DNA of 64,000 bases, taken from assembly GCA_027946365.1 (NCBI GenBank), contig JAPEUQ010000008.1, positions 1,550,001-1,614,000 on the forward strand, read 5' to 3'. Position numbers and translations under genes: made by a program. This document shows, piece by piece, positions 1 through 22,854 of this stretch; within the stretch, counting starts at the first letter, position 1, and each line of letters starts with the position of its first letter. The stretch is from Kalmusia sp. IMI 367209 (lineage: Eukaryota; Ascomycota; Dothideomycetes; Pleosporales; Didymosphaeriaceae). The notes beneath the pieces were generated by a model that saw nothing but the letters and a program-made list of their open reading frames with translations, did not search any database and was not told the DNA's origin.

Positions 1-193
1 ATCATAATCAATTAATATATTTCTATTTACGTCTTAGTCGTTTTTTTAATTATGATTATTGTTAAGGTGGATACTAGGGTAGCTAGGTAATATCAACTAT
101 CACGCATTTATTACAGTTAATTATAACAGTATAACTAGATTCATTGCTACTAGAGCTTCATGACCTATAACTACTACCCTAACAGGTTTCTCC

Positions 194-732
194 TTAATTT
201 GATAGAACGTGCAGGATATGGTATCTTTGGTAGTAACGCTTTGCCAAATAAGAATCTTTGACCTGAATTGTAACCCTCTTTGCATGGATCGCATTCATTT
301 GGCAGTCTAGGAAAATAAGTATTTACTTAATAGTTAATATACTGATTAGAGGTACATACCTTCAAGATATCCAACCATGAACGCCTCAGTAGCTTCTGAA
401 GAGCACTTAGTGCAGAAGCCTGGATGCGCAAGTCCGGCTTGCAGGCATGGACTAGCTCGCGAACAAGACGTGAGAATGGAAGCTTGCGAATAAGTAGCTC
501 TGCAGTTTTTTGATATTGCCTAATCTCTCTAAGCGCCACCGCTATATCCTATCAGCTTAAGAATGTGATTAGAAGCTGTGATAACTTACTGCCTGGCTTA
601 AAGCGCCGCTTTTCTTCGCATTGCCAGCGATCTTCTCGCGCAGCCTTACTAGCTAGATCTTTCTTGAGCTTTTCCGCCAGTTGCTAGCTTATGGCGAGGC
701 TTTTTAGTAGCAACTTGTTTAGATCTAGCCAT
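194..732 (-). CDS. Divergent histone H3-like gene carried by the hAT element (copy 1)
   Basis: The gene has three exons. Consensus of the copies gives a protein of about 147 residues, against 135-136 for canonical H3. The N-tail starts [11 protein letters not shown] and keeps K4 and a TGGKAP block. The globular part matches H3 through [31 protein letters not shown] and the end motif IHAKRVTIQ. Intron 1 (GTAAGT, branch CTGAT) splits the T codon of KPGTV. Intron 2 (GTATGT) follows the EAFMVGYLE segment. The tail after VKDSYLAKR is unrelated to the usual RRIRGERA. In this copy exon 1 and the end of exon 2 are out of frame through small deletions (for example one A lost from CAAGAAG). Loop 1 has the canonical H3 length, so this is an H3 derivative and not a CENP-A. 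It is transcribed away from the acidic-protein gene. Confidence 0.85.
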
Positions 733-1247
733 TATAGGTAGAGTTTGTAGAGCAGCGATAAAAGTTAGAGCAGTTGAAAGTAGAAGTAGAAAGTAGAAGT
801 AGAAAGTAGAAGTTTAGTCGCTGAGGCAATAGTTATATAGCGGTGAATATAGAAGCGAGAAAGTGAAGGTGAGAGGGAGAAAGTGAAGGTGAGAGGAAAT
901 ACAAAGTTGGGCAAGCTAATTTACAGACTCTATCAGCGTATATCACAACAACTCCGTGATAAATTTCCGTGATAATTCACATAGGAAAGAGCTTAAGATG
1001 CGCTTTCGATTGATACTCTTGCCGTAGTAATGCGACTTTTTTGGTCGCTGTATGCGTATGCGCAATATACGATTATTATTATTTATTGTTGTTGTACCGC
1101 GCTAGCATCGCGCACAGGCCACCAAATCTCGCTTAACTGCATCTATAGTCAGTCCCCTGTCAACTTTCTTCTACCTACCTTCTACTATCGCACTTTTGCA
1201 GGATCGCTCTATAAGTTACTACATACCTTTATTACAGTTTCTGCGCA
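733..1247. promoter_or_regulatory. Shared divergent promoter region of the H3-like and acidic-protein genes
   Basis: About 515 bp separate the two divergent start codons. Visible structure: an imperfect GAAGTAGAAAGTA-type purine repeat (about 774-813), a perfect tandem 20-bp repeat starting GAGAAAGTGAAGG (857-876 and 877-896), and two GTGATAA motifs (956-962 and 969-975) flanking an imperfect palindrome. A 73-codon ORF (1030-1251) ends in a TGA that overlaps the ATG of the acidic-protein gene; it could be an upstream ORF. Promoter function is inferred from position only. Confidence 0.5.
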
Positions 1248-2454
1248 ATGAAGTCTCCGCCTATTAAGCAAGAGCCTATTGAAGAGACCGATTATCTAGA
1301 TCGTCCTGAGGGTTTACTGCCCAGTATTAAGCGCGAGATACCAGCTGGATATGACTATGATGAGTGGGACAAGCTTACGAAGGTATTTATTCTAGTTTAT
1401 TATCACAGTATAAACTAATTTATATAGGGTTTTACTTCTGAAGAGCAAGAAATCGATCACGTCCTCTCACTACGTGGACAGAGCGGTTCTCGAAAAGGTC
1501 GTCCTACGAACTTATCAGTACCGTTTAAGGGCGTACTTAGTAATAGTGCTCGTGCTGTTCAGCAAAGAGATCGAGCTGCTCTACGTGATAGAGAGACCAA
1601 GGCTATTGAGAGCGCTAATGCTGCTGATCGTTCTGCCAAAAGTATGCTTAAGAAGAGACTTGAAAAACAAGACACGTACACTTCTCTGTCTGAGGATGCA
1701 AAGAAAACTACCTTAAGATGGAGCAGGAGAAGCTTTCAGATCAGCGCTTTCAGAATCAGAAGAGTAGTAAGTTATAACAGTAATTTATCACATGTTTATA
1801 CTTACAAGGTGTAGGTGAATGGCTAGTAGCTCAGCTACAACGAGTCCACCGGAAATGGGAGAAGCTTAATCACGAAGTTTCCTTAGGCAGCACCACAAAT
1901 CCTAGAGAAGCTAGCCCAGGCTAGTAAAAGCTCTCCTGATAGACAACTCCAAGGCCGTGGAGAGTTGCGACTCTATGGATCTGGCGGTGCCCTTGAGAAA
2001 ATTATGCGAGACACCTATGAAGACGGCAGCAAAGCTCAAAAGCAATACATTCGAAAGTAAAGAGGCTAAAGCTGATTGGCAACAATTTATAGATGGCCTT
2101 ACCAAAGAAGAGTTAGCTATGGTAACAGATAAGGACTGGCAGTAAGTTTATTACATTCTTTTATCACGCTTATATACTAATTACGCTAGACGTTGTGAGC
2201 CTACGTCTGTCCTTGAGTGTATATCTGGGGAGAAGATATTACGCTTGAAAGCAATTTGCCATATGTTCTTGGCGATGAGAGTGATGAGTGTGAAGAAGAA
2301 GTTGACTATGACTCTGAGATTGACGCTGCGTATAATGGGGGATGATGAATATGAGACCTCTACTGATAAAGATGAGGATGAGGATAATGATGATAGTGAG
2401 GAGGAGTTTGAGGGCTTTACAGATTTTGAGGGGTTTTCTGATGAAGACGATTGA
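1248..2454 (+). CDS. Unknown protein with strongly acidic C-terminal tail, hAT cargo (copy 1)
   Basis: I do not recognise the family. The inferred exons are 1248-1382, 1428-1766, 1809-2141 and 2190-2454; the introns are GT..AG and 42-48 nt long. With the homopolymer lengths of copy 2 the protein is about 359 residues. The N-terminus has two psi-K-x-E (SUMO consensus) sites, IKQE at K7 and IKRE at K28. The centre is Lys/Arg/Glu-rich and probably coiled-coil (RDRAALRDRETKAIESA, SLEKLAQASK). The last 80 residues are almost entirely D/E with spaced F and Y, ending FEGFSDEDD. Acidic-aromatic tails of this kind occur in histone chaperones. Because the gene is head-to-head with an H3 variant, I infer a histone-binding role, but nothing here proves it. 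Apparent frameshifts (AAAA for AAAAA near 1708, CC for CCC near 1885) match homopolymer shortening and not RIP. Confidence 0.7.
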
Positions 2455-2801
2455 GTGTCAGAGTCTACTACAGAATGAATACTCAAATATTAGGAGGTAG
2501 ATCTTAGTTAAGTTTTGGCACTCTGCTTAACTGCAATTAGCTAGTAATAGTTAATACAGCCAATAATCACAGATTGTTTACCTGGAATGTAAACATATCA
2601 TTTATGATTTTAATACTCACTTATTATGGAATGTACTTAGGAATGTAAACAGACGTACTAGAATATCATAAGCCCTGCACCTATCTTATAGTCATGAATG
2701 GAAACATACGCATTAAACCCTCTCAGGCCACCAACATATCTCACAACTCCTTTAGTTTTATCACATCTTTTATCACACCACTATCCTTATCCATTCTACT
2801 T

Positions 2802-5448
2802 ATGGCATCTGCTCTTCAATCCCCACAGTTTCCACCTATCCTTAATCAATTCCAATTAAGCGCCCCCAAATTGTTAGAGGGGAACTCAGAGCACCCTGAT
2901 ATTAATTAAATATCCATCTACGAATAACGAACACAATGAGGAACAAAGCGAAATTCGTTCTATATGGAATAAGTGGTGGAGTGAAACTACATGGGCTACG
3001 GATCCTTTAACTCATAACCCACGGTGGAATTCAACCTCTCGTTTTGGCCAAATCTGGACCCAATTTGGAGAGGCCGCACAGTATACAGATGGTCGCCCAT
3101 ATGTATTCTGTCTTAATTGCGGATTTGCACTTCAACATCCAACAGTCAAAACAATTGGAACTAAGCATCTTACGAATCACCTTAATACTCAATCTTGTAA
3201 GGAGACTCTAACTCCTATACATATTCAGTTACCTACACCTACGGCCCGGCCTCTACATTATCGAAATACTATAACACCAGTCCCATTGTATTCTCCTATG
3301 ACCTATGAGAATGAACTTGTACGGGTGGTAATAGACAACAACTGGTCTTTCCGAACAGTAGAGAGGCCATCCTTTCAACGCTTCCTTCAATACCTTAGGC
3401 CCAATACTGTGATAACGAGCCGTTATAAATTACAGTCGATATTCCAGGATCAAGTTAAAACAGCTAAAGCTTCTCTACTTTGTGATCTTTGTAAAACTAC
3501 GAAGATCTCAATTGCCTTAGATGCTTGGTCTGCAAGAAACCATCTTAGCTTTCTTGCAGTAAAGGGGTACTATATTAATAACAACTGGGAATTTTGTGAG
3601 AAGCTACTTGATTTTATCCCAATTCGTGGAAGCCATACAGGTACTTCTATGGCATTAGAAGTACTACAGGTTCTATCTGATACGAATACTAAGCAGCAAC
3701 TTCTAGCTATCACATGTGATAATGCTAGTAATAATGGAACACTGGCTCGTACTATCCAAACTCAACTACAAGAAGAAGGTATTAATTGGGATTCTACTGA
3801 GAATACGGTTCCATGCCTCGCTCATATCATCAATCTGGTTGTCCAGGATATCATTCAGCATCTTGAGCTAGCAGCTCCTAGTGAGCTAGAGGTTAAGAGA
3901 ATCTACAACGGCGCCATATAAATGAGATTCAATCAGAAATTTCAATACCGAATTCTCTTCGGAAGGTAAGCTAGCTTTTATCACAGGTATTTATTACAGA
4001 CTAAGTTATGGCTAGCTCCGGGCAATATGCAAAGCGATTGATCGATCCCACAACGTTTTGAACGTTTTATTGCTACTCAGCAATCCCTACCGCAAAGAAC
4101 GTCTCTCTGTTATACGAGACGTGAGAACTCGTTGGAATTCGACGTTCGACATGTGTGACCGCGCAGTTAAGCTCCAGTCATATATCGATGAATGGCTTAA
4201 ACAAGAAATCAACTTAAAACGACTCCTCATATTACTAGGGCTACCAGTAATAATGATAACGCGGAGGTAGATTTCCGTGACCTTAAACGACTTCGACTAT
4301 CTCATACTGAGTGGCACCACCTTGAGCTTATCACAGCTATGCTAAAGAGGTTTAAGGATGCAACCGACTCTTTGAGCCAGAACCAAAAACCACAGATCCA
4401 ATATATCTGGCTTATGTATAATCGACTCTTTGATTTTTTAGATAAGATGACGGAAGAGCTTAGTGAAGATTCAGAGAATAGAGATAACGCAGAGTGGCCA
4501 ACAGTAGTAAGAGCTGCAGCTAGAAAAGGACGAGCTAAACTAAGCAAGTACTATTCGAAAACAGATGCAGAGCGGGGCTTCTTATTCAACTGCGCAACTA
4601 TTCTCGATCCAACACAAAAGCTTACAGCATATGAGGTACTATTATCACAGCTATTTATTACAGTAATCACTAATACTATCTATAGGATGATACTTGGGAA
4701 GCTCAGGACAAGCATAACTACCGCCAGCAATTTCTTCCAATACCTTGATCGCTATGATAATAAAGAAACCAGAGATTTTACTCCAGTCTCAACTACCTAT
4801 CCTAGACGATCATCAGGTACAGAGTGGTTCGGAAGCCCCATCCTTAAACCAATCACAGTCAAGTAGTATTTCAGTATCTAGCCAAAACCAGGGTACTAGC
4901 TTACAACATATGGAAGAAGAGCAAGGGGCAGCACGTCAGGAAGGAGAAGCTTATCTAAGTACACCTCATATTATTATAGGTGAATCTTTGATATTTTACA
5001 GTGGTGGAAAGCAAATGAGGATACTTATCCTCATCTTGCCCAAATTGCAAAAGATATTCTACCTATTCAGATTACTGCAGTAAGTATTGAGCGTGTTTTA
5101 ATATTGCAAGAGATGTAATTGGAGATCGGAGACACCGTCTTTCAGCCCAGAGAATTCAGCAGATCATGTTTTTAAGCATGCAATTTTTCAAGAGAAGGAG
5201 CAATATATTATTACAGAGGATAGCCTAGCACCTTATGATGGAGTAAATGATCTTTTTGAGCTTCCAACCTATTCAGATCATATAGATAGTATAGAGGAGG
5301 AAAGAGATTACAGAGGAGGAAGAGGTTATAGATGAGGAAGATATTATAGAGCAGGAAAGATATTGTACATATTCCTAGTGTAAATAGAGCAAATACTCCA
5401 ACCACGTAAACGTCGAAGGTTCAACCTCCTTTACGTTACCGTGTTTAA
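2802..5448 (+). CDS. hAT family transposase (copy 1, frame interrupted)
   Basis: This is the element's own transposase, which would excise and reinsert it by DDE chemistry. The N-terminal part has a BED-like finger (CLNCG ... HLTNHL). An RNase H-like core follows, with ISIALDAWSARNHLSFLAV, then CDNASNNGT and PCLAHIINLVVQD, then RTRWNSTFDM. The C-terminal dimerisation region reads DILQWWKANEDTYPHL, then ITAVSIERVFNIARDVIGDRRHRLS. A Glu-rich segment and QPRKR end the protein. Likely introns lie at about 3966-4015 and 4636-4685 (acceptors GGCTAG and TCTATAG). The start at 2802 is chosen because, with copy 2's homopolymer lengths, the frame stays open into the finger. Breaks in copy 1 are small indels (5 versus 6 C near 2870, a lost base near 3890, 4 versus 5 A near 4218). 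An upstream ATG at 2694 is an alternative start. Confidence 0.85.
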
Positions 5449-5589
5449 TAGCTGTTATAAATAAATAGTTCATATCTCTGACTTCCGCTAGTAGAGTGTT
5501 CTACAAAAGTTATAGACGTTTCCCTAAATATACTTTCTAGTAATAGAATTATATAAAATATCAATATAAATTACCGTTATATAAATCCA

Positions 5590-5785
5590 ACCTAGATAGG
5601 AACCCTTAACTCAACCTATACCCAAGGTCCGTGCGACCCAACCCTAACCTGCACCTAGGTCCGTGCGACCCAACTCAACCTACACCTATAAGTTCCAGTG
5701 ACCCAACCTAACCTATACCCAATGCTTAGTAATATAACCCAACCCCAACCTGGCCTATGTTAACCCCAACCCATTTGCCAGTCTA
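5590..5785. repeat. Right subterminal repeats and terminal inverted repeat of hAT copy 1
   Basis: The region contains tandem degenerate units of about 33 bp built on GGTCCGTGCGACCCAACC, then CCCAACCCATTTGCCAGTCTA at the edge. Subterminal repeats of this kind are typical transposase-binding regions in hAT elements; the binding role is inferred. The AACCCTAACC strings resemble telomere repeats but are part of the element. Confidence 0.7.
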
Positions 5786-6262
5786 ATTAGGGCCTATTTA
5801 TACTAATTTATTAATATTATTCCCTAATGATTCCGAATCTTCAGTCTCTAGCCCCTCTTAATCTTTAAGTATAGAGAGGTCGTCCTATCTTCCTTTATCC
5901 TTTCCTTAAAGCGTTGAATTTGGCTATTTAGAGCCTAATCACGTTTCTACGCGTTACGCGCTCTTATAGTAACTATAGACACGAGGGCCCCTTTAGCGTC
6001 CTATTAAGCTAATAGCTTACCTAAGGGTTTTATAAATGTCTTATTATTTTTTTCTACTTAGGCTTACTAACTATAAGTATATAATCTAGGCGGTGAGATA
6101 ATCCATTCACTAGATTTATAGATTCTAAATAGTAGGTTATAATAAAATCGTATTCTAAGAGGGTTAAGTATAACTAAATATAACGTGCTATAAGGATTTT
6201 CATCTCTATAAACTACTAAAGGTTATAATAATCTATAAGAATCTTAAAATAATATCTTTATA
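5786..6262. other. AT-rich RIP-type sequence between hAT copies 1 and 2
   Basis: No intact gene is visible. The sequence is AT-rich and full of TA dinucleotides, in the same style as 12270-14483. Because copy 2 inserted here with an 8-bp duplication, this sequence and 12270 onward were contiguous before that insertion, so it is probably more of the dead minus-strand gypsy element. I found no diagnostic motif in this piece. Confidence 0.5.
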
Positions 6263-6270
6263 AATACTAT
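6263..6270. repeat. Target site duplication AATACTAT, left of hAT copy 2
   Basis: The eight bases AATACTAT immediately precede TAGACTGGCAAATGGG and recur directly after the right end at 12262-12269. Eight bp is the hAT signature. Confidence 0.95.
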
Positions 6271-6636
6271 TAGACTGGCAAATGGGTATAGGTTGAGTTG
6301 GGGTTGGGTCAGATTACATAAGACCTAACCTAACCTATACCTAAACCCATTAATTTAGCGCTAGTAATGGGTATAGGTTAGGTTAGGTTACTAAAATCAG
6401 GGTTGGGTTAGGTTAGGGATATAGTTATGTCTAGGGTCTGAGTAATCATAATCAATTAATATATTTCTATTTACGTCTTAGTCGTTTTTAATTATGATTA
6501 TTGTTAAGGTGGATACTAGGGTAGCTAGGTAATATCAACTATCACGCATTTATTATAGTTAATTATAACAGTATAACTAGATTCATTGCTACTAGAGCTT
6601 CATGACCTATAACTACTACCCCTAACAGGTTTTTCC

Positions 6637-7179
6637 TTAATTTGATAGAACGTGCAGGATATGGTATCTTTGGTAGTAACGCTTTGCCAAATAAGAATCT
6701 TTGACCTGAATTGTAACCCTCTTTGCATGGATCGCATTCATTTGGCAGTCTAGGAAAATAAGTATTTACTTAATAGTTAATATACTGATTAGAGGTACAT
6801 ACCTTCAAGATATCCAACTATGAACGCCTCAGTAGCTTCTTGAAGAGCACTTAGTGCAGAAGCCTGGATGCGCAAGTCCGGCTTGCAGGCATGGACTAGC
6901 TCGCGAACAAGACGTGAGAATGGAAGCTTATGAATAAGTAGCTCTGCAGTTTTTTGATATTGCCTAATCTCTAAGCGCCACCGCTATATCCTATCAGCTT
7001 AAGAATGTGATTAGAAGCTGTGATAACTTACTGCCTGGCTTAAAGCGCCGCTTTTTCTTCGCATTGCCAGCGATCTTCTCGCGCGCAGCCTTACTAGCTA
7101 GATCTTTCTTGGGAGCTTTTCCGCCAGTTGCTAGCTTATGGCGAGGCTTTTTAGTAGCAACTTGTTTAGATCTAGCCAT
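6637..7179 (-). pseudogene. Histone H3-like gene, copy 2
   Basis: It has the same three-exon structure as in copy 1. Exon 1 (from 7179) is open and reads [20 protein letters not shown] and on to KKRRFKPG. Exon 2 lacks two bases (CTCT instead of CTCTCT near 6970), which breaks the VALREIR frame; an Arg-to-His type change occurs in LLIRKL. The final exon retains the IHAKRVTIQ block and the stop at 6637-6639. The tail substitutions at the K9 and K27 contexts are identical to copies 1 and 3, so they are ancestral to the element and not recent damage. Confidence 0.85.
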
Positions 7180-7698
7180 TATAGGTAGAGTTCGTAGAGC
7201 AGCGATAAAAGTTAGAGCAGTTGAAAGTAGAAGTAGAAAGTAGAAGTAGAAAGTAGAAGTTTAGTCGCTGAGGCAATAGTTATATAGCGGTGAATATAGA
7301 AGCGAGAAAGTGAAGGTGAGAGGGAGAAAGTGAAGGTGAGAGGGAAATACAAAAGTTGGGCAAGCTAATTTACAGACTCTATCAGCGTATATCACAACAA
7401 CTCCGTGATAAATTTCCGTGATAATTCACATAGAGAAAGAGCTTAAGATGCGCTTTCGATTGATACTCTTGCCGTAGTAATGCGACTTTTTTTGGTCGCT
7501 GTATGCGTATGCGCAATATACGATTATTATTATTTATTGTTGTTGTACCGCGCTAGCGTCGCGCATGGGCCACCAAATCTCGCTTAACTGCATCTATAGT
7601 TAGTCCCCTATCAACTTTCTTCTACCTACCTTCTACTATCGCACTTTTGCAGGATCGCTCTATAAGTTACTACATACCTTTATTATAGTTTCTGCGCA

Positions 7699-8913
7699 AT
7701 GAAGTCTCCGCCTATTAAGCAAGAGCCTATTAAAGAGACCGATTATCTAGATCGTCCTGAGGGTTTACTGCCCAGTATTAAGCGCGAGATACCAGCTGGA
7801 TATGACTATGATAAGTGGGACAAGCTTACAGAGGTATTTATTCTAGTTTATTATCATAGTATAAACTAATTCATATAGGGTTTTACTTCTGAAGAGCAAG
7901 AAATCGATCACGTCCTCTCACTACGTGGACAGAGCGGTTCTCGAAAAGGTCGTCCTACGAACTTATTAGTACCATTTAAGGGCGTACTTAGTAATAGTGC
8001 TCGTGCTATTCAGTAAAGAGATCGAGCTGCTCTACGTGATAGAGAGACCAAGGCTATTAAGAGCGCTAATGCTGCTAATCGTTCTGCCAAAAGTATGCTT
8101 AAGAAGAGACTTGAAAAATAAGACACGTACACTTCTCTGTCTGAGGATACAAAGAAAAACTACCTTAAGATGGAGCAGGAGAAGCTTTCAGATCAGCGCT
8201 TTTAGAATCAGAAGAGTAGTAAGTTATAATAGTAATTTATCACATGTTTATACTTACAAGGTGTAGGTGAATGGCTAGTAGCTCAGCTACAACGAGTCCA
8301 CCGGAAATGGGAGAAGCTTAATCACGAAGTTTCCCTTAGGCAGCACTACAAATCCCTAGAGAAGCTAGCCCAGGCTAGTAAAAGCTCTCCTGATAGACAA
8401 CTCCAAGGCCGTGAAGAGTTGCGACTCTATGGATCTGGCGGTGCCCTTGAGAAAATTATGCAAGACACCTATGAAGACGGCTTAGCAAAGCTCAAAAGCA
8501 ATACATTCGAAAGTAAAAAGGCTAAAGCTAATTGGCAACAATTTATAGATAGCCTTACTAAAGAAGAGTTAGCTATAGTAATAGATAAGGACTGGCAGTA
8601 AGTTTATTACATTCTTTTATCACGCTTATATACTAATTACGCTAGACGTTGTGAGCCTACGTCTGTCCTTGAGTGTATATCTGGGGGAGAAGATATTACG
8701 CTTGAAAGCAATTTGCCATATGTTCTTGGCGATGAGAGTGATGAGTGTGAAGAAGAAGTTGACTATGACTCTGAGATTGACGCTGCGTATAATGAGGGGG
8801 ATGATGAATATAAGACCTCTACTGATAAAGATGAGGATGAGGATAATGATGATAGTGAGGAGGAGTTTGAGGGCTTTACAGATTTTGAGGGGTTTTCTGA
8901 TGAAGACGATTGA
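7699..8913 (+). pseudogene. Acidic-tail protein gene, copy 2
   Basis: The exons are at about 7699-7833, 7879-8218, 8261-8597 and 8646-8913, matching copy 1. Exon lengths are consistent with one 360-codon frame, which is why this copy was used to place the introns. RIP-type stops are present (for example CAG-to-TAG and CAA-to-TAA in exon 2). The acidic last exon is still open and ends EGFTDFEGFSDEDD. Confidence 0.75.
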
Positions 8914-9262
8914 GTGTCAGAGTCTACTGCAGAATGAATACTCAAATATTAGGAGGTAGATCTTAGTTAAGTTTTGGCACTCTGCTTAACTGCAATTAGC
9001 TAGTAATAGTTAATACAGCCAATAATCACAGATTGTTTACCTAGAATGTAAACATATCATTTATGATTTTAATACTCACTTATTATGGAATGTACTTAGG
9101 AATGTAAACAGACGTACTAGAATATCATAAGCCCTACACCCTATCTTATAGTCATGAATGGAAACATACGCATTAAACCCTCTCAGGCTACCAACATATC
9201 TCACAACTCCTTTAGTTTTATCACATCTTTTTATCACACCACTATCCTTATCCATTCTACTT

Positions 9263-11921
9263 ATGGCATCTGCTCTTCAATCCCCACAGTTTCCACCTAT
9301 CCTTAATTAATTCTAATTAAGCGCCCCCCAAATTGTTAGAGGGGGAACTCAGAGCACCCTGATATTAATTAAATATCCATCTACGAATAACGAACACAAT
9401 GAGGAACAAAGCGAAATTCGTTCTATATAGAATAAGTGGTGGAGTGAAACTACATGGGCTACAGATCCTTTAACTTATAACCTACGGTGGAATTCAACCT
9501 CTCGTTTTAGCCAAATCTAGACCCAATTTGGAGAGGCCGTACAGTATATAGATGGTCGCCCATATATATTCTGTCTCAATTGCGGATTTGCACTTCAACA
9601 TCCAACAGTCAAAACAATTGGAACTAAGCATCTTATAAATCACCTTAATACTCAATCTTGTAAGGAGACTCTAACTCCTATACATATTCAGTTACCTACA
9701 TCTACGGCCCGGCCTCTACATTATCAAAATACTATAACACCAGTCCCATTGTATTCTCCTATGACCTATGAGAATGAACTTATACGGGTGGTAATAGACA
9801 ACAACTGGTCTTTCCGAACAGTAGAGAGGCCATCCTTTCAACGCTTCCTTTAATACCTTAGGCCCAATACTGTGATAACGAGCCGTTATAAATTACAGTC
9901 GATATTCTAGGATCAAGTTAAAACAGCTAAAGCTTCTCTACTTTGTAATCTTTGTAAAACTACGAAGATCTCAATTGCCTTAGATACTTGGTCTACAAGA
10001 AACCATCTTAGCTTTCTTATAGTAAAGGGGTACTATATTAATAACAACTGGGAATTTTGTGAGAAGCTACTTGATTTTATCCCAATTCGTGGAAGCCATA
10101 TAGGTACTTCTATGGCATTAGAAGTACTACAGGTTCTATCTGATACGAATACTAAGCAGCAACTTCTAGCTATCATATATGATAATGCTAGTAATAATGG
10201 AACACTGGCTCGTACTATCCAAACTCAACTATAAGAAGAAGGTATTAATTAGGATTCTACTGAGAATACGGTTCCATGCCTCGCTCATATCATTAATCTG
10301 GTTGTCCAGGATATCATTCAGCATCTTAAGCTAGCAGCTCCTAGTGAGCTAGAGGTTGAAGAGAATCTACAACGACGCCATATAAATGAGATTTAATTAG
10401 AAATTTCAATACCGAATTCTCTTCGGAAGGTAAGCTAGCTTTTATCACAGGTATTTATTACAGACTAAGTTATGGCTAGCTCCAGGCAATATGCAAAGCG
10501 ATTAATCGATCCCTATAATGTTTTGAACGTTTTATTGCTACTCAGCAATCCCTACCACCAAAAGAACGTCTCTCTATTATACGAGACGTAAGAACTCGTT
10601 GGAATTCGACGTTCGACATGTGTGACCGCGTAGTTAAGCTCCAGTCATATATCGATGAATGGCTTAAATAAGAAATCAACTTAAAAACGACTCCTCATAT
10701 TACTAGGGCTACCAGTAATAATGATAACGCGGAGGTAGATTTCCGTGACCTTAAACGACTTCAACTATCTCATACTGAGTGGCACCACCTTGAGCTTATC
10801 ACAGCTATACTAAAGAGGTTTAAGGATGCAACCGACTCTTTGAGCTAGAACCAAAAACCATAGATCCAATATATCTGGCTTATGTATAACCAACTCTTTG
10901 ATTTTTTAGATAAGATGACGGAAGAGCTTAGTGAAGATTCAGAGAATAGAAATAACGCAGAGTAGCTAATAGTAGTAAGAGCTGTAGCTAGAAAAGGACG
11001 AGCTAAACTAAGCAAGTACTATTCAAAAACAGATGCAGAGCGGGGCTTCTTATTCAACTGCGCAACTATTCTCGATCCAACACAAAAGCTTACAGCATAT
11101 AAGGTACTATTATTACAGCTATTTATTACAGTAATCACTAATACTATCTATAGGATGATACTTGAGAAGCTTAGGATAAGCATAACTACCGCTAGTAATT
11201 TCTTCAATACCTTGATCGCTATGATAATAAAGAAACTAGAGATTTTACTCTAGTCTCAACTACCTATCCTAGACGATTATTAGGTACAGAGTGGTTCTGG
11301 AAGCCCCCATCCTTAAACTAATCACAGTCAAGTAGTATTTTAGTATCTAGCCAAAACCAGGGTACTAGCTTACAACATATGGAAGAAGAGCAAGGGGCAG
11401 CACGTTAGGAAGGAGAAGCTTATCTAAGTACACCTCATATTATTATAGGTGAATCTTTTGATATTTTACAGTGGTGGAAAGCAAATGAGGATACTTATCC
11501 TTATCTTACCCAAATTATAAAAGATATTCTACCTATTTAGATTACTATAGTAAGTATTAAGCATGTTTTTAATATTGTAAGAGATGTAATTGGAGATCGG
11601 AGACACCGTCTTTCAGCCTAGAGAATTTAGTAGATCATGTTTTTTAAGCATGCAATTTTTCAAGAGAAGGAGCAATATATTATTATAGAGGATAGCCTAG
11701 CACCTTATAATAGAGTAAATGATCTTTTTGAGCTTCCAACCTATTCAGATCATATAGATAGTATAGAGGAGGAAGAGATTACAGAGGAGGAAGAGGTTAT
11801 AGATAAGGAAGAGATTATAGAGCAGGAAGATATTGTACATATTCCTAGTGTAAATAGGGAGCAAATACTCCAACCACGTAAACGTTGAAGGGTTTAACCT
11901 CCTTTACATTACCGTATTTAA
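9263..11921 (+). pseudogene. hAT transposase, copy 2 (RIP stops)
   Basis: It is colinear with the transposase of copy 1. The finger, RNase H-like core and dimerisation region are recognisable, but CAA/CAG codons have become TAA/TAG in many places, and some Trp codons have become TAG. The C-terminal 83 codons (11637-11888) remain open and include the Glu-rich segment and QPRKR. Non-functional as it stands. Confidence 0.85.
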
Positions 11922-12261
11922 TAGCTGTTATAAATAAATAGTTTATATCTCTGACTTCCGCTAGTAGAGTGTTCTACAAAAGTTATAGACGTTTCCTAAA
12001 TATACTTTCTAGTAATAGAATTATATAAAATATCAATATAAATTACCGTTATATAAACCAACCTAGATAGGAACCTCTTAACCTAACCTATACCTAAGGT
12101 CCGTGCGACCTAACCCTAACCTGCCTAGGGTCCGTGCGACCTAACCTTAACCTACTTTTAAGGTTCGTGCGACCCAACCCCAACCTTATACCCAATGCTT
12201 AGTAATAGCTAACCTAACCCCAACCTATCTATGGTTAACTCCCAACCCATTTGCCAGTCTA

Positions 12262-12269
12262 AATACTAT
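12262..12269. repeat. Target site duplication AATACTAT, right of hAT copy 2
   Basis: Identical to 6263-6270 and immediately after CCAGTCTA. Confidence 0.95.
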
Positions 12270-14483
12270 TACTAATACTTTATACTTTTAATAATAATAA
12301 GTAGTTCTTTATTATATATATTATAATGATACTGGGTATCGTTAAGCTTCCTTAAAAGAAGTTAATAGGCCACTATATAACTTAGCTATCCCTATTAGGG
12401 ACTAGCTAGCTATAAATAGTACTAATTACCCTCTAGATATATCTATCTCTAAGCGTGTCCGTCTATCATTCTTATAATAAGTAAGTATTAGTACCTTAAG
12501 AAACGTATTTTTAAGGTCCTGAAAAGCTTAGCGGCCTTTAGGTTCTAAGTCTAGCTAAAAGCTCTCCTCCTTCTTATAGTTAACCCTAATAAATACTATC
12601 TAGACCTTTCTTCATTAGACTGGTTAAAGGAAGGGTAATCTGGGAGAAATTAATTATAAATTTATAATAATAGTTTATAAAGCTAATAAATACCCTTATA
12701 TTATATATATAAATTAATATTAGCTATAACTAGATTACCTCTATATAATCTAGGTTAATCATGAGGCCTTTAGCGGTAATAATAAAGCCTAGATACTTAG
12801 TTATACTAGTATACTATTTATATTTTTTAGGTTAATAAATAACTTTGTATTATATAAACGTTAGAGTACCTCCTATATATAATATATATGGTCCTCCTCG
12901 TTATTAGAGAAGACTAAGATGTTATTAAGGTATATAATATAACTTACGTCTACTAATCTAGCTAGTATTTAGGCGATAAGTCCCTAGAACTATACTAGAA
13001 TATTAGTAAGTCTAAAAGATATTACTAAGTATTTAAAGTAACTATAGTGGGTCCTAAATATAGTCTTCTACTTATTCCTCTTTATAATATATATATAGTA
13101 ATATACCTCCTTTAGATTAATTTTTATAAAAATTTTCGCCTATTGGAGCCGATTTAGTAACTTAGTAATTAATAAAAGTAACCCGCGATTTTTAATTATA
13201 ATCTTATTTAGTCCTCTATAGTCTATATATAGTCTAAGACTACTATCTTTCTTTTTATAAAGAGTATTAGCGCCTCTACTAGTAATTTTATGACGAATCT
13301 ACCCTCTTATAAGATATTTTTAATATACTTCTAGAGAGTCTCTAATTCTAAGATCAATAGATTATATATAGGAAAGTATAATAGTTACTAGCCTAATTTA
13401 AGCTCTATATATAAGTTATACTTACTATAATCTGGTATAGCCTTAAAGTCCTTACTAGAGCCTAGGTCATTAAAGTTAGAGTAAGTATCTGGTATTAAGC
13501 CCTCCCTATCCTTAGTAGATTTATTTAGCGCCAGATTACCCACTATAGATATAATATAGGCGTAAATAGCTATATTTATATCTTAGAGTATACGATTAAA
13601 CTCTTCTACGTCTTCTATAGTAATCTTTTTTAAAGGGATGTTATAGCTTTACGATCTCTCCTTAGAAAAGAATATATTAATTTATAATATTAACCTTTAG
13701 GTTTACCTAGTTAAACTATAGTAAGCCTAAAAATATATTATATCCTAAGAGGTCTACTACATTATAAAAGGTATTACTTAGAGCTATTTATATCTCCTTA
13801 AGTCCGTAAGCTTTATATTAAGTACTATAGTACTATATATTATTATCTTAAATCCATTTACCACTTTTACTAGTAAATTATTTAAGGATATTACGTCTAC
13901 CTTAGCCCGTTTTTAGTCTTTTTAAGGATAATAGATTTAGCGTAGACGCTAAATTTATAAAAGCATCTATATCTATTAAGTTATTTAACTCTAGCCTTTA
14001 AAAGTGAGTATCCCTTTTGGCTTTTATAAAGCTAGTTAAATAGATAGCCTATATTATAAACCTCTGGAATTCGATTAATATAGTTAATAACTAATTTAAT
14101 ATAAGTAGATAGGGCTATTAATAGTCCTTCTACCCTTTATCTTTTCCTAATAGGTCCTGAAGTGCTTGCTCCTTATTAAATTAAGCATTCTTAACCTAGG
14201 CACTACTGGTTTGTTTAAGGTGGGGTAATCTAGACGTATATACCCTAATTTATTATAATACTAGTAGGTTAGTACGTTAGGGTTCTTAGTAACGTCTAAT
14301 AGTATCTAATTAGATCCTTTTAGACTATTACCCTATATATTAGTTATCTTAGCCTTTTTCTGTAATCTTTTCGTTTCTTAAAATCTGGCCTCTACTAGCG
14401 GTCCTTAGGCGGCCGTCCCTTTCCTAGAGAGACTTCTTAAACTTATATAGATCTTTTTATTTAAAAGATAATTAACGCTTAAA
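12270..14483 (-). pseudogene. RIP-destroyed Ty3/gypsy gag-pol remnant (gypsy A)
   Basis: Read on the minus strand, three diagnostic blocks survive once G-to-A and C-to-T changes are allowed for. At about 14222-14270 there is a gag zinc knuckle (YNKLGYIRLDYP from C..C....GH....C). At about 13200-13320 the RT block reads KKKDSSLRLYIDYRGLNK, from DGSLRLCVDYRGLN. At about 12907-12933 it reads YLNNILVFS, from the catalytic YLDDILVFS. The order gag, then RT on the minus strand, fits one element. No open frame remains. hAT copies 2 and 3 interrupt it, so further parts are expected at 5786-6262 and 20501-21649. Confidence 0.75.
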
Positions 14484-14491
14484 GTTCTATA
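14484..14491. repeat. Target site duplication GTTCTATA, left of hAT copy 3
   Basis: GTTCTATA precedes TAGACTGGCAAATGGG and recurs at 20493-20500. Confidence 0.95.
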
Positions 14492-14670
14492 TAGACTGGC
14501 AAATGGGTTGGGGTTAACCATAGATAGGTTGGGGTTGGGTTAGCTATTACTAAGCATTGGGTATAGGTTGGGGTTGGGTCACACGAACCTTAGGTGTAGG
14601 TTAAGGTTGGGTCGCACGGACCCTAGGTGCAGGTTAGGGTTGGGTCGCACGGACCTTGGGTATAGGTTGG
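14492..14670. repeat. Subterminal tandem repeats of hAT copy 3 (transposase-distal end)
   Basis: After the terminal TAGACTGGCAAATGGG there are about three 33-bp units carrying GGTTGGGTCGCACGGACC (roughly 14561-14660). Unit sequences differ by a few transitions. They are the inverse of the repeats at 5590-5785. Confidence 0.7.
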
Positions 14671-14832
14671 GTTAAGGGTTCCTATCTAGGTTGGATTTAT
14701 ATAACGGTAATTTATATTGATATTTTATATAATTCTATTACTAGAAAGTATATTTAGGAAACGTCTATAACTTTTTGTAGAACACTCTACTAGCGGAAGT
14801 CAGAGATATGAACTATTTATTTATAACAGCTA

Positions 14833-17491
14833 TTAAACACGGTAACGTAAAGGAGGTTGAACCCTTTGACGTTTACGTGGTTGGAGTATTTGCTCCCTAT
14901 TTACACTAGGAATATGTACAATATCTTCCTGCTCTATAATCTCTTCCTCATCTATAACCTCTTCCTCCTCTGTAATCTCTTCCTCCTCTATACTATCTAT
15001 ATGATCTGAATAGGTTGGAAGCTCAAAAAGATCATTTACTCTATTATAAGGTGCTAGGCTATCCTCTGTAATAATATATTGCTCCTTCTCTTAAAAAATT
15101 ACATGCTTAAAAAACATGATCTGCTGAATTCTCTGGGCTAAAAGACGGTGTCTCTGATCTCCAATTACATCTCTTGTAATATTAAAAACACGCTCAATAC
15201 TTACTACAGTAATCTGAATAGGTAGAATATCTTTTGTAATTTAGGTAAGATGAGGATAAGTATCCTCATTTACTTTCCACCACTGTAAAATATCAAAAGA
15301 TTCACCTATAATAATATGAGGTGTACTTAGATAAGCTTCTCCTTCCTGACGTGCTGCCCCTTGCTCTTCTTCTATATGTTGTAAGCTAGTACCCTGGTTT
15401 TGGCTAGATACTAAAATACTACTTAACTGTGATTGGTTTAAGGATGGGGGCTTCCGGAACCACTCTGTACCTGATGATCATCTAGGATAGGTAGTTGAGA
15501 CTGGAGTAAAATCTCTGGTTTCTTTATTATTATAGCGATCAAGGTATTGAAGAAATTACTGGCGGTAGTTATGCTTGTCCTGAGCTTCCTAAGTATCATC
15601 CTATAGATAGTATTAGTGATTACTGTAATAAATAGCTGTGATAATAGTACCTTATATGCTGTAAGCTTTTGTGTTGGATCGAGAATAGTTGCGTAGTTGA
15701 ATAAGAAGCCCCGCTCTGCATCTGTTTTCGAATAGTACTTGCTTAGTTTAGCTCGTCCTTTTCTAGCTGTAGCTTTTACTACTGTTAGCCACTCTGCGTT
15801 ATCTCTATTCTCTGAATCTTCACTAAGCTCTTCCGTCATCTTATCTAAAAAATCAAAGAGTCGGTTATACATAAGCTAGATATATTGGATCTGTGGTTTT
15901 TGGTTCTGGCTCAAAGAGTCGGTTGCATCCTTAAACCTCTTTAGCATAGCTGTGATAAGCTCAAGGTAGTGCCACTTAGTATGAGATAGTCGAAGTCGTT
16001 TAAGGTCACGGAAATCTACCTCCGCGTTATCATTATTACTGGTAGCCCTAGTAATATGAGGAGTCGTTTTTAAGTTGATTTCTTGTTTAAGCCATTCATC
16101 GATATATGACTGGAGCTTAACTACGCGGTCACACATGTCGAACGTCGAATTCCAATGAGTTCTTACGTCTCGTATAACAGAGAGACGTTCTTTTGGTGGT
16201 AGGGATTGCTGAGTAGTAATAAAATGTTTAAAACGTTGTAGGGATCGATCAATCGCTTTGCATATTGCCTGGAGCTAGCCATAACTTAGTCTGTAATAAA
16301 TACCTGTGATAAAAGCTAGCTTACCTTCCGAAGAGAATTCGGTATTAAAATTTCTAATTGAATCTTATTTATATAGCGCCGTTGTAGATTCTCTTCAACC
16401 TCTAGCTCACTAGGAGCTGCTAGCTTAAGATGCTGAATGATATCCTGGACAACCAGATTAATGATATGAGTGAGGCATGGAACCGTATTCTTAGTAGAAT
16501 CCCAATTAATACCTTCTTCTTATAGTTGAGTTTGGATAGTACGAGCCAGTATTCCATTATTACTAGCATTATCACATATGATAGCTAGAAGTTGCTGCTT
16601 AGTATTCGTATCAGATAGAACCTGTAGTACTTCTAATGCCATAGAAGTACCTGTATGGCTTCCACGAATTGGGATAAAATCAAGTAGCTTCTCACAAAAT
16701 TCCCAGTTGTTATTAATATAGTACCCCTTTACTACAAGAAAGCTAAGATGGTTTCTTACAGACTAAGCATCTAAGGCAATTAAGATCTTCGTAGTTTTAC
16801 AAAGATCACAAAGTAGAGAAGCTTTAGCTATTTTAACTTGATCCTGGAATATCGACTGTAATTTATAACGGCTCATTATCACAGTATTGGGCCTAAGGTA
16901 TTAAAGGAAGCGTTGAAAGGATGGCCTCTCTACTGTTCGGAAAGACCAGTTGTTGTCTATTACCACCCATACAAGTTCATTCTCATAGGTCATAGGAGAA
17001 TACAATGGGACTGGTGTTATAGTATTTTAATAATATAGAGGCCGGGCCGTAGGTATAGGTAACTGAATATGTATAGGAGTTAGAGTCTCCTTACAAGATT
17101 GAGTATTAAGGTGATTCGTAAGATGCTTAGTTCCAATTGTTTTGACTATTAGATGTTGAAGTGCAAATCCGCAATTGAGACAGAATACATATGGGCGACC
17201 ATCTGTATACTGTGCGGCCTCTCCAAATTGGGTCCAGATTTGGCCAAAACGAGAGGTTGAATTCCACCGTAGGTTATAAGTTAAAGGATCCGTAGCCCAT
17301 ATAGTTTCACTCTACCACTTATTCCATATAGAACGAATTTCGCTTTATTCCTCATTATGTTCGTTATTCGTAGATGGATATTTAATTAATATCAGGGTGC
17401 TCTGAGTTCCCCCTCTAACAATTTAGGGGGCGCTTAATTGGAATTAATTAAGGATAGGTGGAAACTGTAGGGATTAAAGAGCAGATGCCAT
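14833..17491 (-). pseudogene. hAT transposase, copy 3
   Basis: Minus strand, colinear with copies 1 and 2. Long open stretches survive: 15876-16136 (with DEWLKQEINLK and ELITAMLKRFKD) and 15438-15872 (with KGRAKLSKYYSKTDAERGF and NYATILDPTQKLTAY). The frame is interrupted by RIP-type stops (for example at the start of the catalytic core) and by a changed intron 2 acceptor context. Non-functional as it stands. Confidence 0.85.
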
Positions 17492-17840
17492 AAGTAGAAT
17501 AGATAAGGATAGTGGTGTGATAAAAAGATGTGATAAAACTAAAGGAGTTGTGAGATATGTTGGTGGCCTGAGAGGGTTTAATGCGTATGTTTCCATTCAT
17601 GACTATAAGATAGGGTGCAGGGCTTATGATATTCTAGTACGTCTGTTTACATTCCTAAGTACATTCCATAATAAGTGAGTATTAAAATCATAAATGATAT
17701 GTTTACATTCCAGGTAAACAATCTGTGATTATTGGCTATATTAACTATTACTAGCTAATTGCAGTTAAGCAGAGTGCCAAAACTTAACTAAGATCTACCT
17801 CCTAATATTTGAGTATTTATTCTGCAGTAGACTCTGACAC

Positions 17841-19055
17841 TCAATCGTCTTCATCAGAAAACCCCTCAAAATCTGTAAAGCCCTCAAACTCCTCCTCACT
17901 ATCATCATTATCCTCATCCTTATCTTTATTAGTAGAGGTCTTATATTCATCATCCCCCTCATTATACGCAGCGTCAATCTCAGAGTTATAGTCAACTTCT
18001 TCTTCATACTCATCACTCTCATCGCCAAGAACATATGGCAAATTACTTTCAAGCGTAATATCTTCTCCCCCAGATATACACTTAAGGACAGACGTAGGCT
18101 CACAACGTCTAGCGTAATTAGTATATAAGCGTGATAAAAGAATGTAATAAACTTACTGCTAGTCCTTATCTATTACCATAGCTAACTCTTCTTTGGTAAG
18201 GCCATCTATAAATTGTTGCCAATCAGCTTTAGCCTTTTTACTTTTGAATGTATTGCTTTTGAGCTTTGCTAAGCCGTCTTCATAGGTGTCTTGCATAATT
18301 TTCTCAAGGGCACCGCCAGATCCATAGAGTCGCAACTCTCCACGGCCTTGGAGTTGTCTATCAGGAGAGCTTTTACTAGCCTGGGCTAGCTTCTCTAGGG
18401 ATTTGTAGTGCTGCCTAAGGGAAACTTCGTGATTAAGCTTCTCCCATTTCCGGTGGACTCGTTGTAGCTGAGCTACTAGCCATTCACCTACACCTTGTAA
18501 GTATAAACATGTGATAAATTACTATTATAACTTACTACTCTTCTGATTCTGAAAGCGCTGATCTGAAAGCTTCTCCTACTTTATCTTAAGGTAGTTTTTC
18601 TTTGCATCCTCAGACAGAGAAGTGTACGTGTCTTGTTTTTTAAGTCTCTTCTTAAGTATACTTTTGGTAGAACGATCAGTAGCATTAGCGCTCTTAATAG
18701 CCTTAGTCTCTCTATCACGTAGAGCAGCTCGATCTCTTTGCTGAATAGCATGAGCACTATTACTAAGTACGCCCTTAAACGGTACTAATAAGTTTATAGG
18801 ACGACCTTTTCGAGAACCGCTCTGTCTACGTAGTGAGAGGACGTGATCGATTTCTTGCTCTTTAGAAGTAAAACCCTATATGAATTAGTTTATACTATAA
18901 TAATAAACTAGAATAAATACCTCTGTAAGCTTGTCCCACTCATCATAGTCATATCCAGCTGATATCTCGCGCTTAATACTAGGCAGTAAACCCTCAGGAC
19001 GATCTAGATAATCAGTCTCTTCAATAGGCTCTTGCTTAATAGGCGGAGACTTCAT
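17841..19055 (-). pseudogene. Acidic-tail protein gene, copy 3
   Basis: Same four-exon layout on the minus strand, start codon at 19055. Exon 1 is intact, with both SUMO-consensus sites. Exon 2 has a RIP-type stop where the element consensus has MEQEK (EQ became K-stop). The acidic exon is open and ends FEGFSDEDD at 17841. Confidence 0.75.
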
Positions 19056-19573
19056 TGCGCAGAAACTGTAATAAAGGTATGTAGTAACTTATAGAGCGAT
19101 CCTGCAAAAGTGCGATAGTAGAAGGTAGGTAGAAGAAAGTTGACAGGGGACTGACTATAGATGCAGTTAAGCGAGATTTGGTGGCCCGTGCGCGACGCTA
19201 GCGCGGTACAACAACAACAAATAATAATAATCGTATATTGCGCATACGCATACAGCGACCAAAAAAGTCGCATTACTATAGTAAGAGTATCAATCGAAAG
19301 CGCATCTTAAGCTCTTTCTCTATGTGAATTATCACGGAAATTTATCACGGAGTTGTTGTGATATACGCTGATAGAGTCTGTAAATTAGCTTACCCAACTT
19401 TTGTATTTCCCTCTCACCTTTACTTTCTCCCTCTCACCTTTACTTTCTCGCTTCTATATTCACCGCTATATAACTATTGCCTCAGCGACTAAACTTCTAC
19501 TTTCTACTTCTACTTTCTACTTCTACTTTTAACTGCTCTAACTTTTATCGCTGCTCTACGAACTCTACCTATA

Positions 19574-20118
19574 ATGGCTAGATCTAAACAAGTTGCTACT
19601 AAAAAGCCTCGCCATAAGCTAGCAACTGGCGGAAAAGCTCCCAAGAAAGATCTAGCTAGTAAGGCTGCGCGCGAGAAGATCGCTGGCAATGCGAAGAAAA
19701 AGCGGCGCTTTAAGCCAGGCAGTAAGTTATCACAGCTTCTAATCACATTCTTAAGCTGATAGGATATAGCGGTGGCGCTTAGAGAGATTAGGCAATATTA
19801 AAAAACTGCAGAGCTACTTATTCGCAAGCTTCCATTCTCACGTCTTGTTCGCGAGCTAGTCCATGCCTGCAAGCCGGACTTGCGCATCCAGGCTTCTGTA
19901 CTAAGTGCTCTTCAAGAAGCTACTGAGGCGTTCATGGTTGGATATCTTGAAGGTATGTACCTCTAATCAGTATATTAACTATTAAGTAAATACTTATTTT
20001 CCTAGACTGCCAAATGAATGCGATCCATGCAAAGAGGGTTACAATTTAGGTCAAAGATTCTTATTTGGCAAAGCGTTACTACTAAAGATACTATATCCTG
20101 TACGTTCTATCAAATTAA
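19574..20118 (+). pseudogene. Histone H3-like gene, copy 3 (clearest exon structure)
   Basis: The exons are 19574-19721, 19770-19952 and 20006-20118. Intron 1 (48 nt) and intron 2 (53 nt) are GT..AG. Exon 1 gives the full tail [35 protein letters not shown] and KRRFKPG. Exon 2 gives VALREIRQY, then a RIP stop (CAA to TAA), then [15 protein letters not shown] and [22 protein letters not shown] sequence. Exon 3 reads [13 protein letters not shown], a second CAG-to-TAG stop, then [11 protein letters not shown]. Only RIP-type changes disable it, so the ancestral gene is easy to read. Confidence 0.88.
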
Positions 20119-20492
20119 GGAGAAAACCTGTTAGGGGTAGTAGTTATAGGTCATGAAGCTCTAGTAGCAATGAATCTAGTTATACTGTTATAATTAACTA
20201 TAATAAATGCGTGATAGTTGATATTACCTAGCTACCCCTAGTATCCACCTTAACAATAATCATAATTAAAAAAACGACTAAGACGTAAATAGAAATATAT
20301 TAATTGATTATGATTACTCAGACCCTAGACATAACCATATCCCCTAACCCTAACCCAACCCTGATTTTAGTAACCTAACCCTAACCTATACCCATTACTA
20401 GCGCTAAATTAATGGGTTTAGGTATAGGTTAGGTTAGGGTCTTATGTAATCTGACCCAACCCCAACCCAACCTATACCCATTTGCCAGTCTA

Positions 20493-21649: not shown

Positions 21650-22574
21650 ACTAATCGTTCTACTAAAAGTATACTTAAGAAGAGACTTAAAAAATAAGAC
21701 ACGTACACTTCTCTATCTAAGAATATAAAGAAAAACTATTTTAAGATAGAATAGAAGAAGCTTTTAGATTAACGCTTTTAGAATTAGAAGAGTAGTAAGT
21801 TATAATAGTAATTTATTATATATTTATACTTATAAGGTATAGGTAAATGGTTAGTAGCTTAGCTATAATAAGTCTACTAGAAATAGGAGAAGCTTAATTA
21901 TAAAGTTTCCTTTAGGTAGTACTATAAATCCTTAGAGAAGCTAGTCTAGGCTAGTAAAAGCTCTCCTAATAGATAACTTTAAGGCTATAAAGAGTTACGA
22001 CTCTATAGATCTAGTAGTACCCTTAAGAAAATTATATAAGACATTTATAAAGATGGCTTAGTAAAGCTTAAAAGTAATATATTTAAAAGTAAAGAGGCTA
22101 AAGCTAATTAATAATAATTTATAAATAGCCTTACTAAAAAGAGTTAGCTATAGTAATAGATAAGGATTAGTAGTAAGTTTATTATATTCTTTTATTATGC
22201 TTATATACTAATTACGCTAGATGTTATAAGCCTATATCTATCCTTAAGTATATATCTAGGGAGAAGATATTACGCTTAAAAGTAATTTACTATATATTCT
22301 TAGTAATAAGAGTAATAAGTATAAAGAAGAAGTTAATTATAACTTTAAGATTAATGCTACGTATAATGAGGGGATGATAAATATAAGACCTCTACTAATA
22401 AAGATAAGGATAAGGATAATAATAATAGTAAGGAGGAGTTTAAGGACTTTATAGATTTTAAGGGTTTTCTAATAAAGATGATTAAGTATTAGAGTCTACT
22501 ATAGAATAAATACTTAAATATTAGAAGATAGATTTTAGTTAAGTTTTGGCACTCTACTTAACTGCAATTAGCTA
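21650..22574 (+). mobile_element. hAT transposon copy 4, left part (truncated, heavily RIPed)
   Basis: Homology to the element begins abruptly inside exon 2 of the acidic-protein gene (CTAATCGTTCTACTAAAAG, compared with CTGATCGTTCTGCCAAAAG in copy 1). The H3 gene and left terminus are missing. Nearly every CA has become TA. The copy continues to the gypsy insertion at 22575-22580 and resumes at 29489. Confidence 0.85.
21651..22485 (+). pseudogene. Acidic-tail protein gene remnant, copy 4
   Basis: Contains exon 2 (partial) to exon 4. Saturated with RIP transitions; many Asp/Glu codons have become Asn/Lys codons (GAT to AAT, GAG to AAG), so the acidic tail is lost. Recognised only by alignment with copies 1-3. 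Confidence 0.75.
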
Positions 22575-22790: not shown

Positions 22791-22854
22791 CTACCTTGTA
22801 GGATAGCGGCTCAGCATCCCGCAACAGAAACGCCGGAGAAACGCAGGCGCGTCG

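What the first reader, a model, noticed from the sequence alone, without database searches (positions are those of the whole stretch)
1..20492. A hAT transposon that carries a histone H3 variant plus an acidic partner gene
Three near-full-length copies contain the same three-gene set: divergent H3, acidic-tail protein head-to-head with it, and transposase. Both cargo genes keep introns and matching exon phases, and the differences between copies are mostly RIP transitions or homopolymer changes. This suggests the cargo was maintained as functional through spreading and was not a passive capture. I recall a report of H3 transduplication by a hAT element in Pyrenophora tritici-repentis; the acidic partner gene and the paired layout may not have been described.
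Basis: partly seen in the sequence, partly recalled or inferred. Interest (0 to 1): 0.92.

Follow-up and report, generated by a model that had tools for sequence, protein, structure and literature searches.

The report
Old jumping gene carrying histone pair
A fungal jumping gene carries its own odd histone H3 and a conserved acidic partner protein; the same kind of element was described in a wheat fungus in 2013, but the sequences indicate that the histone is an old, shared part of this element family and not a recent copy of the host's own gene.

Summary
The window has three near-complete copies (about 6 kb, 8-bp target duplications, matching ends) of a hAT element with an H3-like gene (H3L), an acidic "central" gene and a transposase, plus a fourth copy split by a retroelement. 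It is not a new kind: Manning et al. [quoted passage not shown] The window element is a clearly diverged relative (central protein 49%, H3L 66% identical over aligned residues). Copies here differ mainly by RIP changes and indels, so they cannot show selection on the cargo. Comparison between species is informative: nine H3L proteins form one clade apart from 17 other H3 sequences (support 100/100), and a recent origin from the host H3 is rejected (p-AU about 1e-5). H3L introns sit at positions unlike the host H3 gene. The central protein has named homologs in five genera and ends in an acidic tail with a conserved [DE]FEGF motif. Best reading: an old three-gene element whose H3L and acidic protein work together on chromatin. 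The pairing and the function are inferred, not shown.

The parts
1..5785 (+). hAT element copy 1 (true start 178 bases before the window, 5,963 bp), TSD ATTAGGGC
   Evidence: TIR TAGACTGGCAAATGGG at C29:1549823 and right end at window 5785, identical 8-bp flanks
194..732 (-). H3L gene, copy 1 (3 exons; frame broken by an indel in this copy)
   Evidence: read; intact 147-aa spliced frame in sister copy L016; PF00125 E 2.1e-32
733..1247 (.). region between the divergent H3L and central start codons (about 0.52 kb), possible shared promoter
   Evidence: gap of 520 bases in sister copy L010; promoter role is inference
1248..2454 (+). central acidic gene, copy 1 (4 exons; frame broken by indels in this copy)
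   Evidence: intact 359-aa spliced frame in sister copy L010; 37 D/E and 1 K/R in the last 75 residues
2802..5448 (+). hAT transposase gene, copy 1 (introns; indels)
   Evidence: PF05699 Dimer_Tnp_hAT E 3.6e-18 in the same gene of sister copy L069; P. tritici-repentis transposase part matches this copy at 80% over its residues 2-123
6271..12261 (+). hAT element copy 2 (5,991 bp), TSD AATACTAT
   Evidence: ends and flanks
6637..7179 (-). H3L gene, copy 2 (frame broken)
   Evidence: locus L017
7699..8913 (+). central acidic gene, copy 2 (RIP-hit)
9263..11921 (+). transposase gene, copy 2 (RIP stops)
14492..20492 (-). hAT element copy 3 (6,001 bp), TSD GTTCTATA (plus strand)
   Evidence: ends and flanks
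19574..20118 (+). H3L gene, copy 3 (frame broken)
   Evidence: L018
17841..19055 (-). central acidic gene, copy 3 (RIP-hit)
14833..17491 (-). transposase gene, copy 3 (RIP stops)
21651..22486 (+). copy 4, partial central gene, before a retroelement insertion
   Evidence: 83% DNA match at C29:1571651-1572486
29949..32046 (+). copy 4, transposase part, after the retroelement
   Evidence: 82% DNA match at C29:1579949-1582046

Best explanation
The window holds copies of an old three-gene hAT transposon family of Pleosporales fungi (transposase, H3L, acidic central protein). Shown by sequence: the gene set stays together in this genome; the window H3L belongs to one clade with H3Ls of Pyrenophora, Paraphoma and environmental sequences, not with the host H3; the central protein is conserved across genera; intron positions recur in relatives; RIP then damages most copies. 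Inferred: the cargo genes are kept by selection on the element. Inferred: the central protein acts as a carrier (chaperone-like partner) for H3L, transcribed from the shared divergent upstream region, using its acidic tail for histone binding and its [DE]FEGF tail motif to dock on a TFIIS-N-terminal-domain protein of the Pol II elongation machinery. Inferred: H3L nucleosomes laid at or near the element would favour its expression or transposition. I give about 0.9 to the family and ancestry part and about 0.3 to the pairing mechanism.
For: TIRs, 8-bp TSDs, Dimer_Tnp_hAT. 28 of 36 central hits with left end and transposase; 28 of 29 transposase hits of 1,900 bp or more next to a central gene. 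Central homologs: 16 proteins at 39-52% identity; named sources are Pyrenophora (3 species), Bipolaris, Alternaria, Boeremia, Parastagonospora; 3 of 16 have no species name. H3L clade, 9 against 17 rows, support 100/100; window or P. tritici-repentis H3L as sister of host H3 rejected, p-AU 1.4e-5 each. In 11 H3L sequences (P0141, out of frame at its end, left out) all 11 have N where the host H3 has C before [A/S]IHA, S for I after [K/R]D, and Y[Y/F] for LR near the end. The H3L intron at E105/D106 appears unspliced (16 residues each) in P0139, P0142 and P0143; inserts read as unspliced central introns lie at the window's intron 1 place in P0005 and intron 2 place in P0014 and P0015. [DE]FEGF stands in the last 60 residues of 8 of 9 full-length central proteins, shuffle chance about 0.5% or less each; FxGF is the reported consensus of LEDGF-domain partners (PMC6877644 passages); the genome has 4 TFIIS-N-domain hits (PF08711). 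ESTs for H3L reported by Manning 2013 (section 20).
Confidence: 0.45

Rival explanations
1. Transduplication: a hAT element recently captured the host's H3 (or its transcript) and the gene has simply been copied along with no use to the element.
For: This is the published view for P. tritici-repentis and, separately, an older capture for Mycosphaerellaceae (PMC3538342 section 20; PMC6710886). Host H3 introns are absent from H3L, as in a retrocopy. Raw identity of the P. tritici-repentis H3L fold to the host H3 is 72%.
Against: AU test rejects window H3L or P. tritici-repentis H3L as sister of the host H3 (p about 1.4e-5); the H3L clade holds two named genera of two families (Pyrenophora, Paraphoma), the unnamed window species and environmental sequences, with shared odd residues and a shared intron; frames stay open at 39-52% (central) and 57-72% (H3L) protein identity.
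Confidence: 0.12
2. The central protein is an ordinary second transposition protein (DNA binding or complex assembly, as in other two-gene DNA transposons) and has nothing to do with H3L; H3L is a separate passenger or helps in its own way.
For: Long-helix model with a basic part before the tail (pI 8.6 without the last 75 residues; helices); many autonomous DNA transposons carry a second gene (recalled knowledge); in the P. tritici-repentis short form the central N-terminus is fused to the transposase C-terminus (Manning 2013; P0016).
Against: The divergent head-to-head layout and the acidic tail point to histones, but only weakly; nothing tested here excludes this rival.
Confidence: 0.35
3. 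H3L and the acidic protein serve silencing escape: H3L tails with altered K9/K27 surroundings make element chromatin a poor substrate for heterochromatin marking.
For: The tail is remodelled at K9 and K27 in the window H3L (insertion after ATKK, AAREK for AARKS).
Against: Other H3Ls keep the K9 context (ARKTTGG in P0075, PRKTTGG in P0071) and P0061 and P0069 keep KAARKS; elements here are heavily RIP-hit anyway.
Confidence: 0.12

Closest known systems
Pyrenophora tritici-repentis H3L hAT transduplication element (Manning et al. 2013, PMC3538342)
   Same: Same three genes (full-length hAT transposase, central ORF, H3L), TIRs, similar length (about 5.6 kb there, about 6.0 kb here); homologous proteins: central 49% over 344, H3L 66% over 126, transposase pieces 84.5%, 72% and 40% over 110, 61 and 65 aligned residues.
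   Different: Diverged far beyond a strain difference; no hit here joins the central N-terminus to the transposase C-terminus as in the 2.3-kb short form (judged from hit positions only); older copies here are heavily RIP-hit, those there are reported as nearly identical.
H3-carrying hAT elements of Pseudocercospora, Cercospora and Sphaerulina (Dhillon et al. 2019, PMC6710886)
   Same: hAT superfamily, 8-bp TSD, H3-like gene, heavy RIP.
   Different: About 9.5 kb with one or two H3-like sequences per element; reported as an independent event and without DNA similarity to the P. tritici-repentis element. Lead: a 16-residue insertion they report in the second H3 copy has the length of the unspliced intron seen here in P0139, P0142 and P0143.
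LEDGF/IWS1-type FxGF docking motif (JIL-1/JASPer, PMC6877644)
   Same: Acidic-F-x-G-F sequence in a disordered stretch.
   Different: Resemblance of a short motif only; binding untested; no LEDGF-domain hit in this genome, and that search is not informative (its controls did not ring).

Membership tests
[quoted passage not shown]
   3 of 3 window copies with both ends
hAT superfamily DNA transposon | transposase with hAT C-terminal dimerisation domain | tested here: met
   PF05699 E 3.6e-18, over its cut-off, in sister copy L069; hAT-like RNase H PF14372 E 2.7e-4, below its cut-off
P. tritici-repentis H3L element family | three homologous genes in the order H3L, central, transposase | tested here: met
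   homology; order here; that the central ORF lies between is taken from its name and figure legend in PMC3538342
P. tritici-repentis H3L element family | similar TIR sequence | not tested
   the passages read give no TIR letters
histone H3 variant | H3 histone fold and H3-type tail | tested here: met
   PF00125 E 2.1e-32; the 60 listed PDB hits are H3 chains
centromeric H3 (CenH3) | groups with CenH3 in a tree | tested here: not met
   host CenH3 fragment falls with the 16 other non-H3L rows, H3L apart, 100/100; only one CenH3 row, half filled
recent copy of the host H3 gene | sister to host H3 and same introns | tested here: not met
   p-AU 1.4e-5; host introns near K9 and after I119, H3L introns at T45 and D106
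known histone chaperone families (central protein) | recognised chaperone fold or domain | tested here: inconclusive
   no significant Pfam, PDB sequence or fold match
FxGF / TFIIS-N-domain-interacting motif protein | acidic-FxGF motif in a disordered tail | tested here: met
   8 of 9 full-length homologs; tail of the P0004 model has pLDDT under 50
FxGF / TFIIS-N-domain-interacting motif protein | physical binding to such a domain | not testable with these tools
   needs a binding assay

The most novel reading that the evidence does not exclude
One ancient hAT lineage, present in Pleosporales and perhaps also the source of the Mycosphaerellaceae H3 elements, encodes its own chromatin system: a variant H3 with a changed H3-H3'/chaperone face and a dedicated acidic carrier that docks on the transcription elongation machinery, so that the element writes its own nucleosomes. 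The published independent, recent captures would then be one old inheritance.
Probability: 0.2. Interest if true: 0.85.

Novelty: new member of a known kind. Interest (0 to 1): 0.6.

Why it matters
The published account treats H3 amplification by hAT elements as transduplication, recent in P. tritici-repentis. A conserved clade of element-borne H3 with its own introns and a conserved partner gene would make it a maintained element function, and it makes a direct question testable: does a mobile element deposit its own variant nucleosomes? H3L would also be a natural set of divergent H3s for studying what the H3-H3' interface tolerates.

Tried and rejected
Within-genome selection test: dropped. 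In 22 of 30 loci there are at most 9 non-RIP substitutions, too few to test. L038/L073 looked like a diverged subfamily (2-16% non-RIP changes by region in its first 2.2 kb), but it lies within the first 6.3 kb of contig C6, is gap-rich and has flat codon-position rates, so I read it as unpolished sequence; only the first 190 central codons could be used there. Two other low-identity copies, L071 and L072, have 0-3% non-RIP changes in the gene parts that aligned. L028, L033 and L037 have their non-RIP differences in blocks, probably other sequence.

Fold of the central protein: AlphaFold on 13 sequences gave a helical model of middling confidence (pLDDT 72, pTM 0.51); PDB, viral and VIA-align searches gave no convincing match. 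Rows such as dynein stalk, APLP1 E2 and RNA polymerase helices are common arrangements. FACT SPT16 at E 0.85 and Elongin A at E 0.003 in 1 of 13 members (below Pfam's cut-off) were not taken as evidence.

A host copy of the central gene was looked for with the P. tritici-repentis protein P0004: 49 hits, 49 of 49 inside the central-gene places; no separate host gene was found at that sensitivity.

H3L search by full length was swamped by ordinary H3 (7,989 hits, best 120 listed), so only P0061, P0069, P0071 and P0075 were picked from it by eye; the search by C-terminal region gave 8 hits. Tree rows were chosen by me: 9 H3L (P0138, P0139, P0141 left out as near-copies or fragments of P0137) and 17 others. 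For the FEGF count, 9 sequences were used (P0001-P0006, P0010, P0012, window L010); P0007, P0008, P0009, P0011, P0013-P0016 were left out as truncated, fused or near-copies.

Indels: 176 deletions against L010 in 9 young copies, 126 of one base, 75 in homopolymers of three or more, which hold 14% of bases; insertions were not counted. Probably assembly error in repeats, not tested with reads.

No paper on the acidic nature of the central ORF, H3L monophyly or the FEGF motif turned up in the paper searches; subscription journals and supplements were not searched.
Full report
What is there. The window is C29:1550001-1614000 of a 42.8-Mb fungal assembly in 30 contigs. Three near-complete copies of one element lie at 1-5785 (starting 178 bases before the window), 6271-12261 and 14492-20492 (the last on the minus strand). 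Each has the termini TAGACTGGCAAATGGG...CCCATTTGCCAGTCTA and identical 8-bp flanks, and the transposase of a sister copy has the hAT dimerisation domain. Inside are three genes: H3L (147 aa, three exons), a 359-aa central protein in four exons starting head-to-head with H3L about 520 bases away, and the transposase. A fourth copy is split by a retroelement with gag-like and protease-like frames.

Genome-wide. The central gene has 36 hits, a lower bound: 12 at 95-100% and 24 at 72-88% DNA identity to copy 1. 28 of 36 have the left end and the transposase on the expected sides; central-to-transposase distance is 540-550 bases in most, with exceptions of 1,776 and 2,114. 28 of 29 transposase hits of at least 1,900 bp have a central gene upstream within 3 kb. 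So no cargo-less full element was seen. In 22 of 30 loci compared, all but at most 9 substitutions are C-to-T or G-to-A, in older copies mostly at CpA, i.e. RIP; eight loci are exceptions. Young copies carry many short deletions (176 in nine copies), probably assembly error; H3L reads through in 1 of 10 and the central gene in 1 of 7 readable young loci. One source plus RIP leaves too little information on selection inside this genome.

What is known. Manning et al. 2013 (PMC3538342; [quoted passage not shown] Dhillon et al. 2019 (PMC6710886; four of seven parts read plus passages) described H3-carrying hATs in Mycosphaerellaceae as a separate event, and states that the P. tritici-repentis event was recent and took a transcript. 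The anatomy is therefore not new.

What is new here. First, the window element is a far relative: central protein 49% identical to that of P. tritici-repentis, H3L 66%. Second, central homologs (16 proteins) come from Pyrenophora, Bipolaris, Alternaria, Boeremia and Parastagonospora, three of the 16 being unnamed; Boeremia exigua, Alternaria panax, Paraphoma chrysanthemicola and P. seminiperda were checked as Pleosporales, Bipolaris and Parastagonospora are placed there from memory. Third, H3L is one lineage: nine H3Ls against 17 other H3 rows, 100/100, and forcing the window or the P. tritici-repentis H3L next to the host H3 is rejected (p-AU 1.4e-5). Against this, raw identity of the fold does not separate them (P. 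tritici-repentis H3L 72% to host H3, 70.5% to the window H3L), and seven of the H3L sequences came from a search with the region that carries the shared residues. All 11 H3L sequences compared (P0141 left out) have N before [A/S]IHA where the host has C, KDS or RDS for KDI, and an aromatic pair after LAxx. By recalled canonical numbering these are positions 110, 124 and 130-131, near the H3-H3' contact and the Asf1 face; that is structural knowledge from memory, not tested. Fourth, introns: the host H3 is interrupted near K9 and after I119, H3L at T45 and D106; three relatives keep the D106 intron unspliced as 16 residues, and inserts at the places of central introns 1 and 2 appear in P0005, P0014 and P0015. 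Fifth, the acidic tail (37 D/E and 1 K/R in 75 residues) ends in [DE]FEGF in 8 of 9 full-length proteins. This matches the FxGF consensus reported for partners of the LEDGF domain (PMC6877644 passages); TFIIS N-terminal domains bind short motifs of this general kind (PMC13175633 and PMC12278311 passages; the exact FxGF wording is not in those passages). The genome has four PF08711 hits.

Reading. An old element family kept H3L and the acidic protein over genus-level divergence, which for open reading frames under RIP is hard to explain without selection on the element; but dN/dS was not measurable here. That the acidic protein serves H3L is an inference from layout, charge and co-conservation. 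P. seminiperda central and H3L proteins come from contigs of equal length (675,226), which suggests linkage there too. The main rival is a plain transposition accessory protein. A lead against the published two-event view: the 16-residue insertion reported in the second H3 copy of P. fijiensis elements is exactly the length of the unspliced D106 intron; its place was not given in the text I read.

Noticed in passing
window 22807-24674: Retroelement inside copy 4: gag-like frame with zinc knuckle (PF00098 E 3.8e-4) and a protease-like frame (PF13650 E 1e-4, just below cut-off), in a stretch of 53-66% G+C, so little touched by RIP.
   Followed up: partly
window 1-5785: The hexamer TATCAC/GTGATA occurs 17 times in copy 1 against 3.1 expected in 200 shuffles (highest shuffle 11), also in introns and between genes; possibly a transposase or regulatory site.
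   Followed up: partly
L073 (C6:3800-9400), about its first 2.4 kb: Scattered non-RIP substitutions and gaps end abruptly; looks like unpolished sequence near a contig end rather than a diverged subfamily.
   Followed up: partly
loci L009-L020: Young copies carry many short indels, often in homopolymers, that break frames although substitutions are rare; likely long-read assembly error in repeats, so gene-breaking counts in this assembly should not be trusted.
   Followed up: partly
window 30001-34000: G+C content 21-23%, a strongly AT-rich block that includes the rest of copy 4, as expected from repeated RIP.
   Followed up: no
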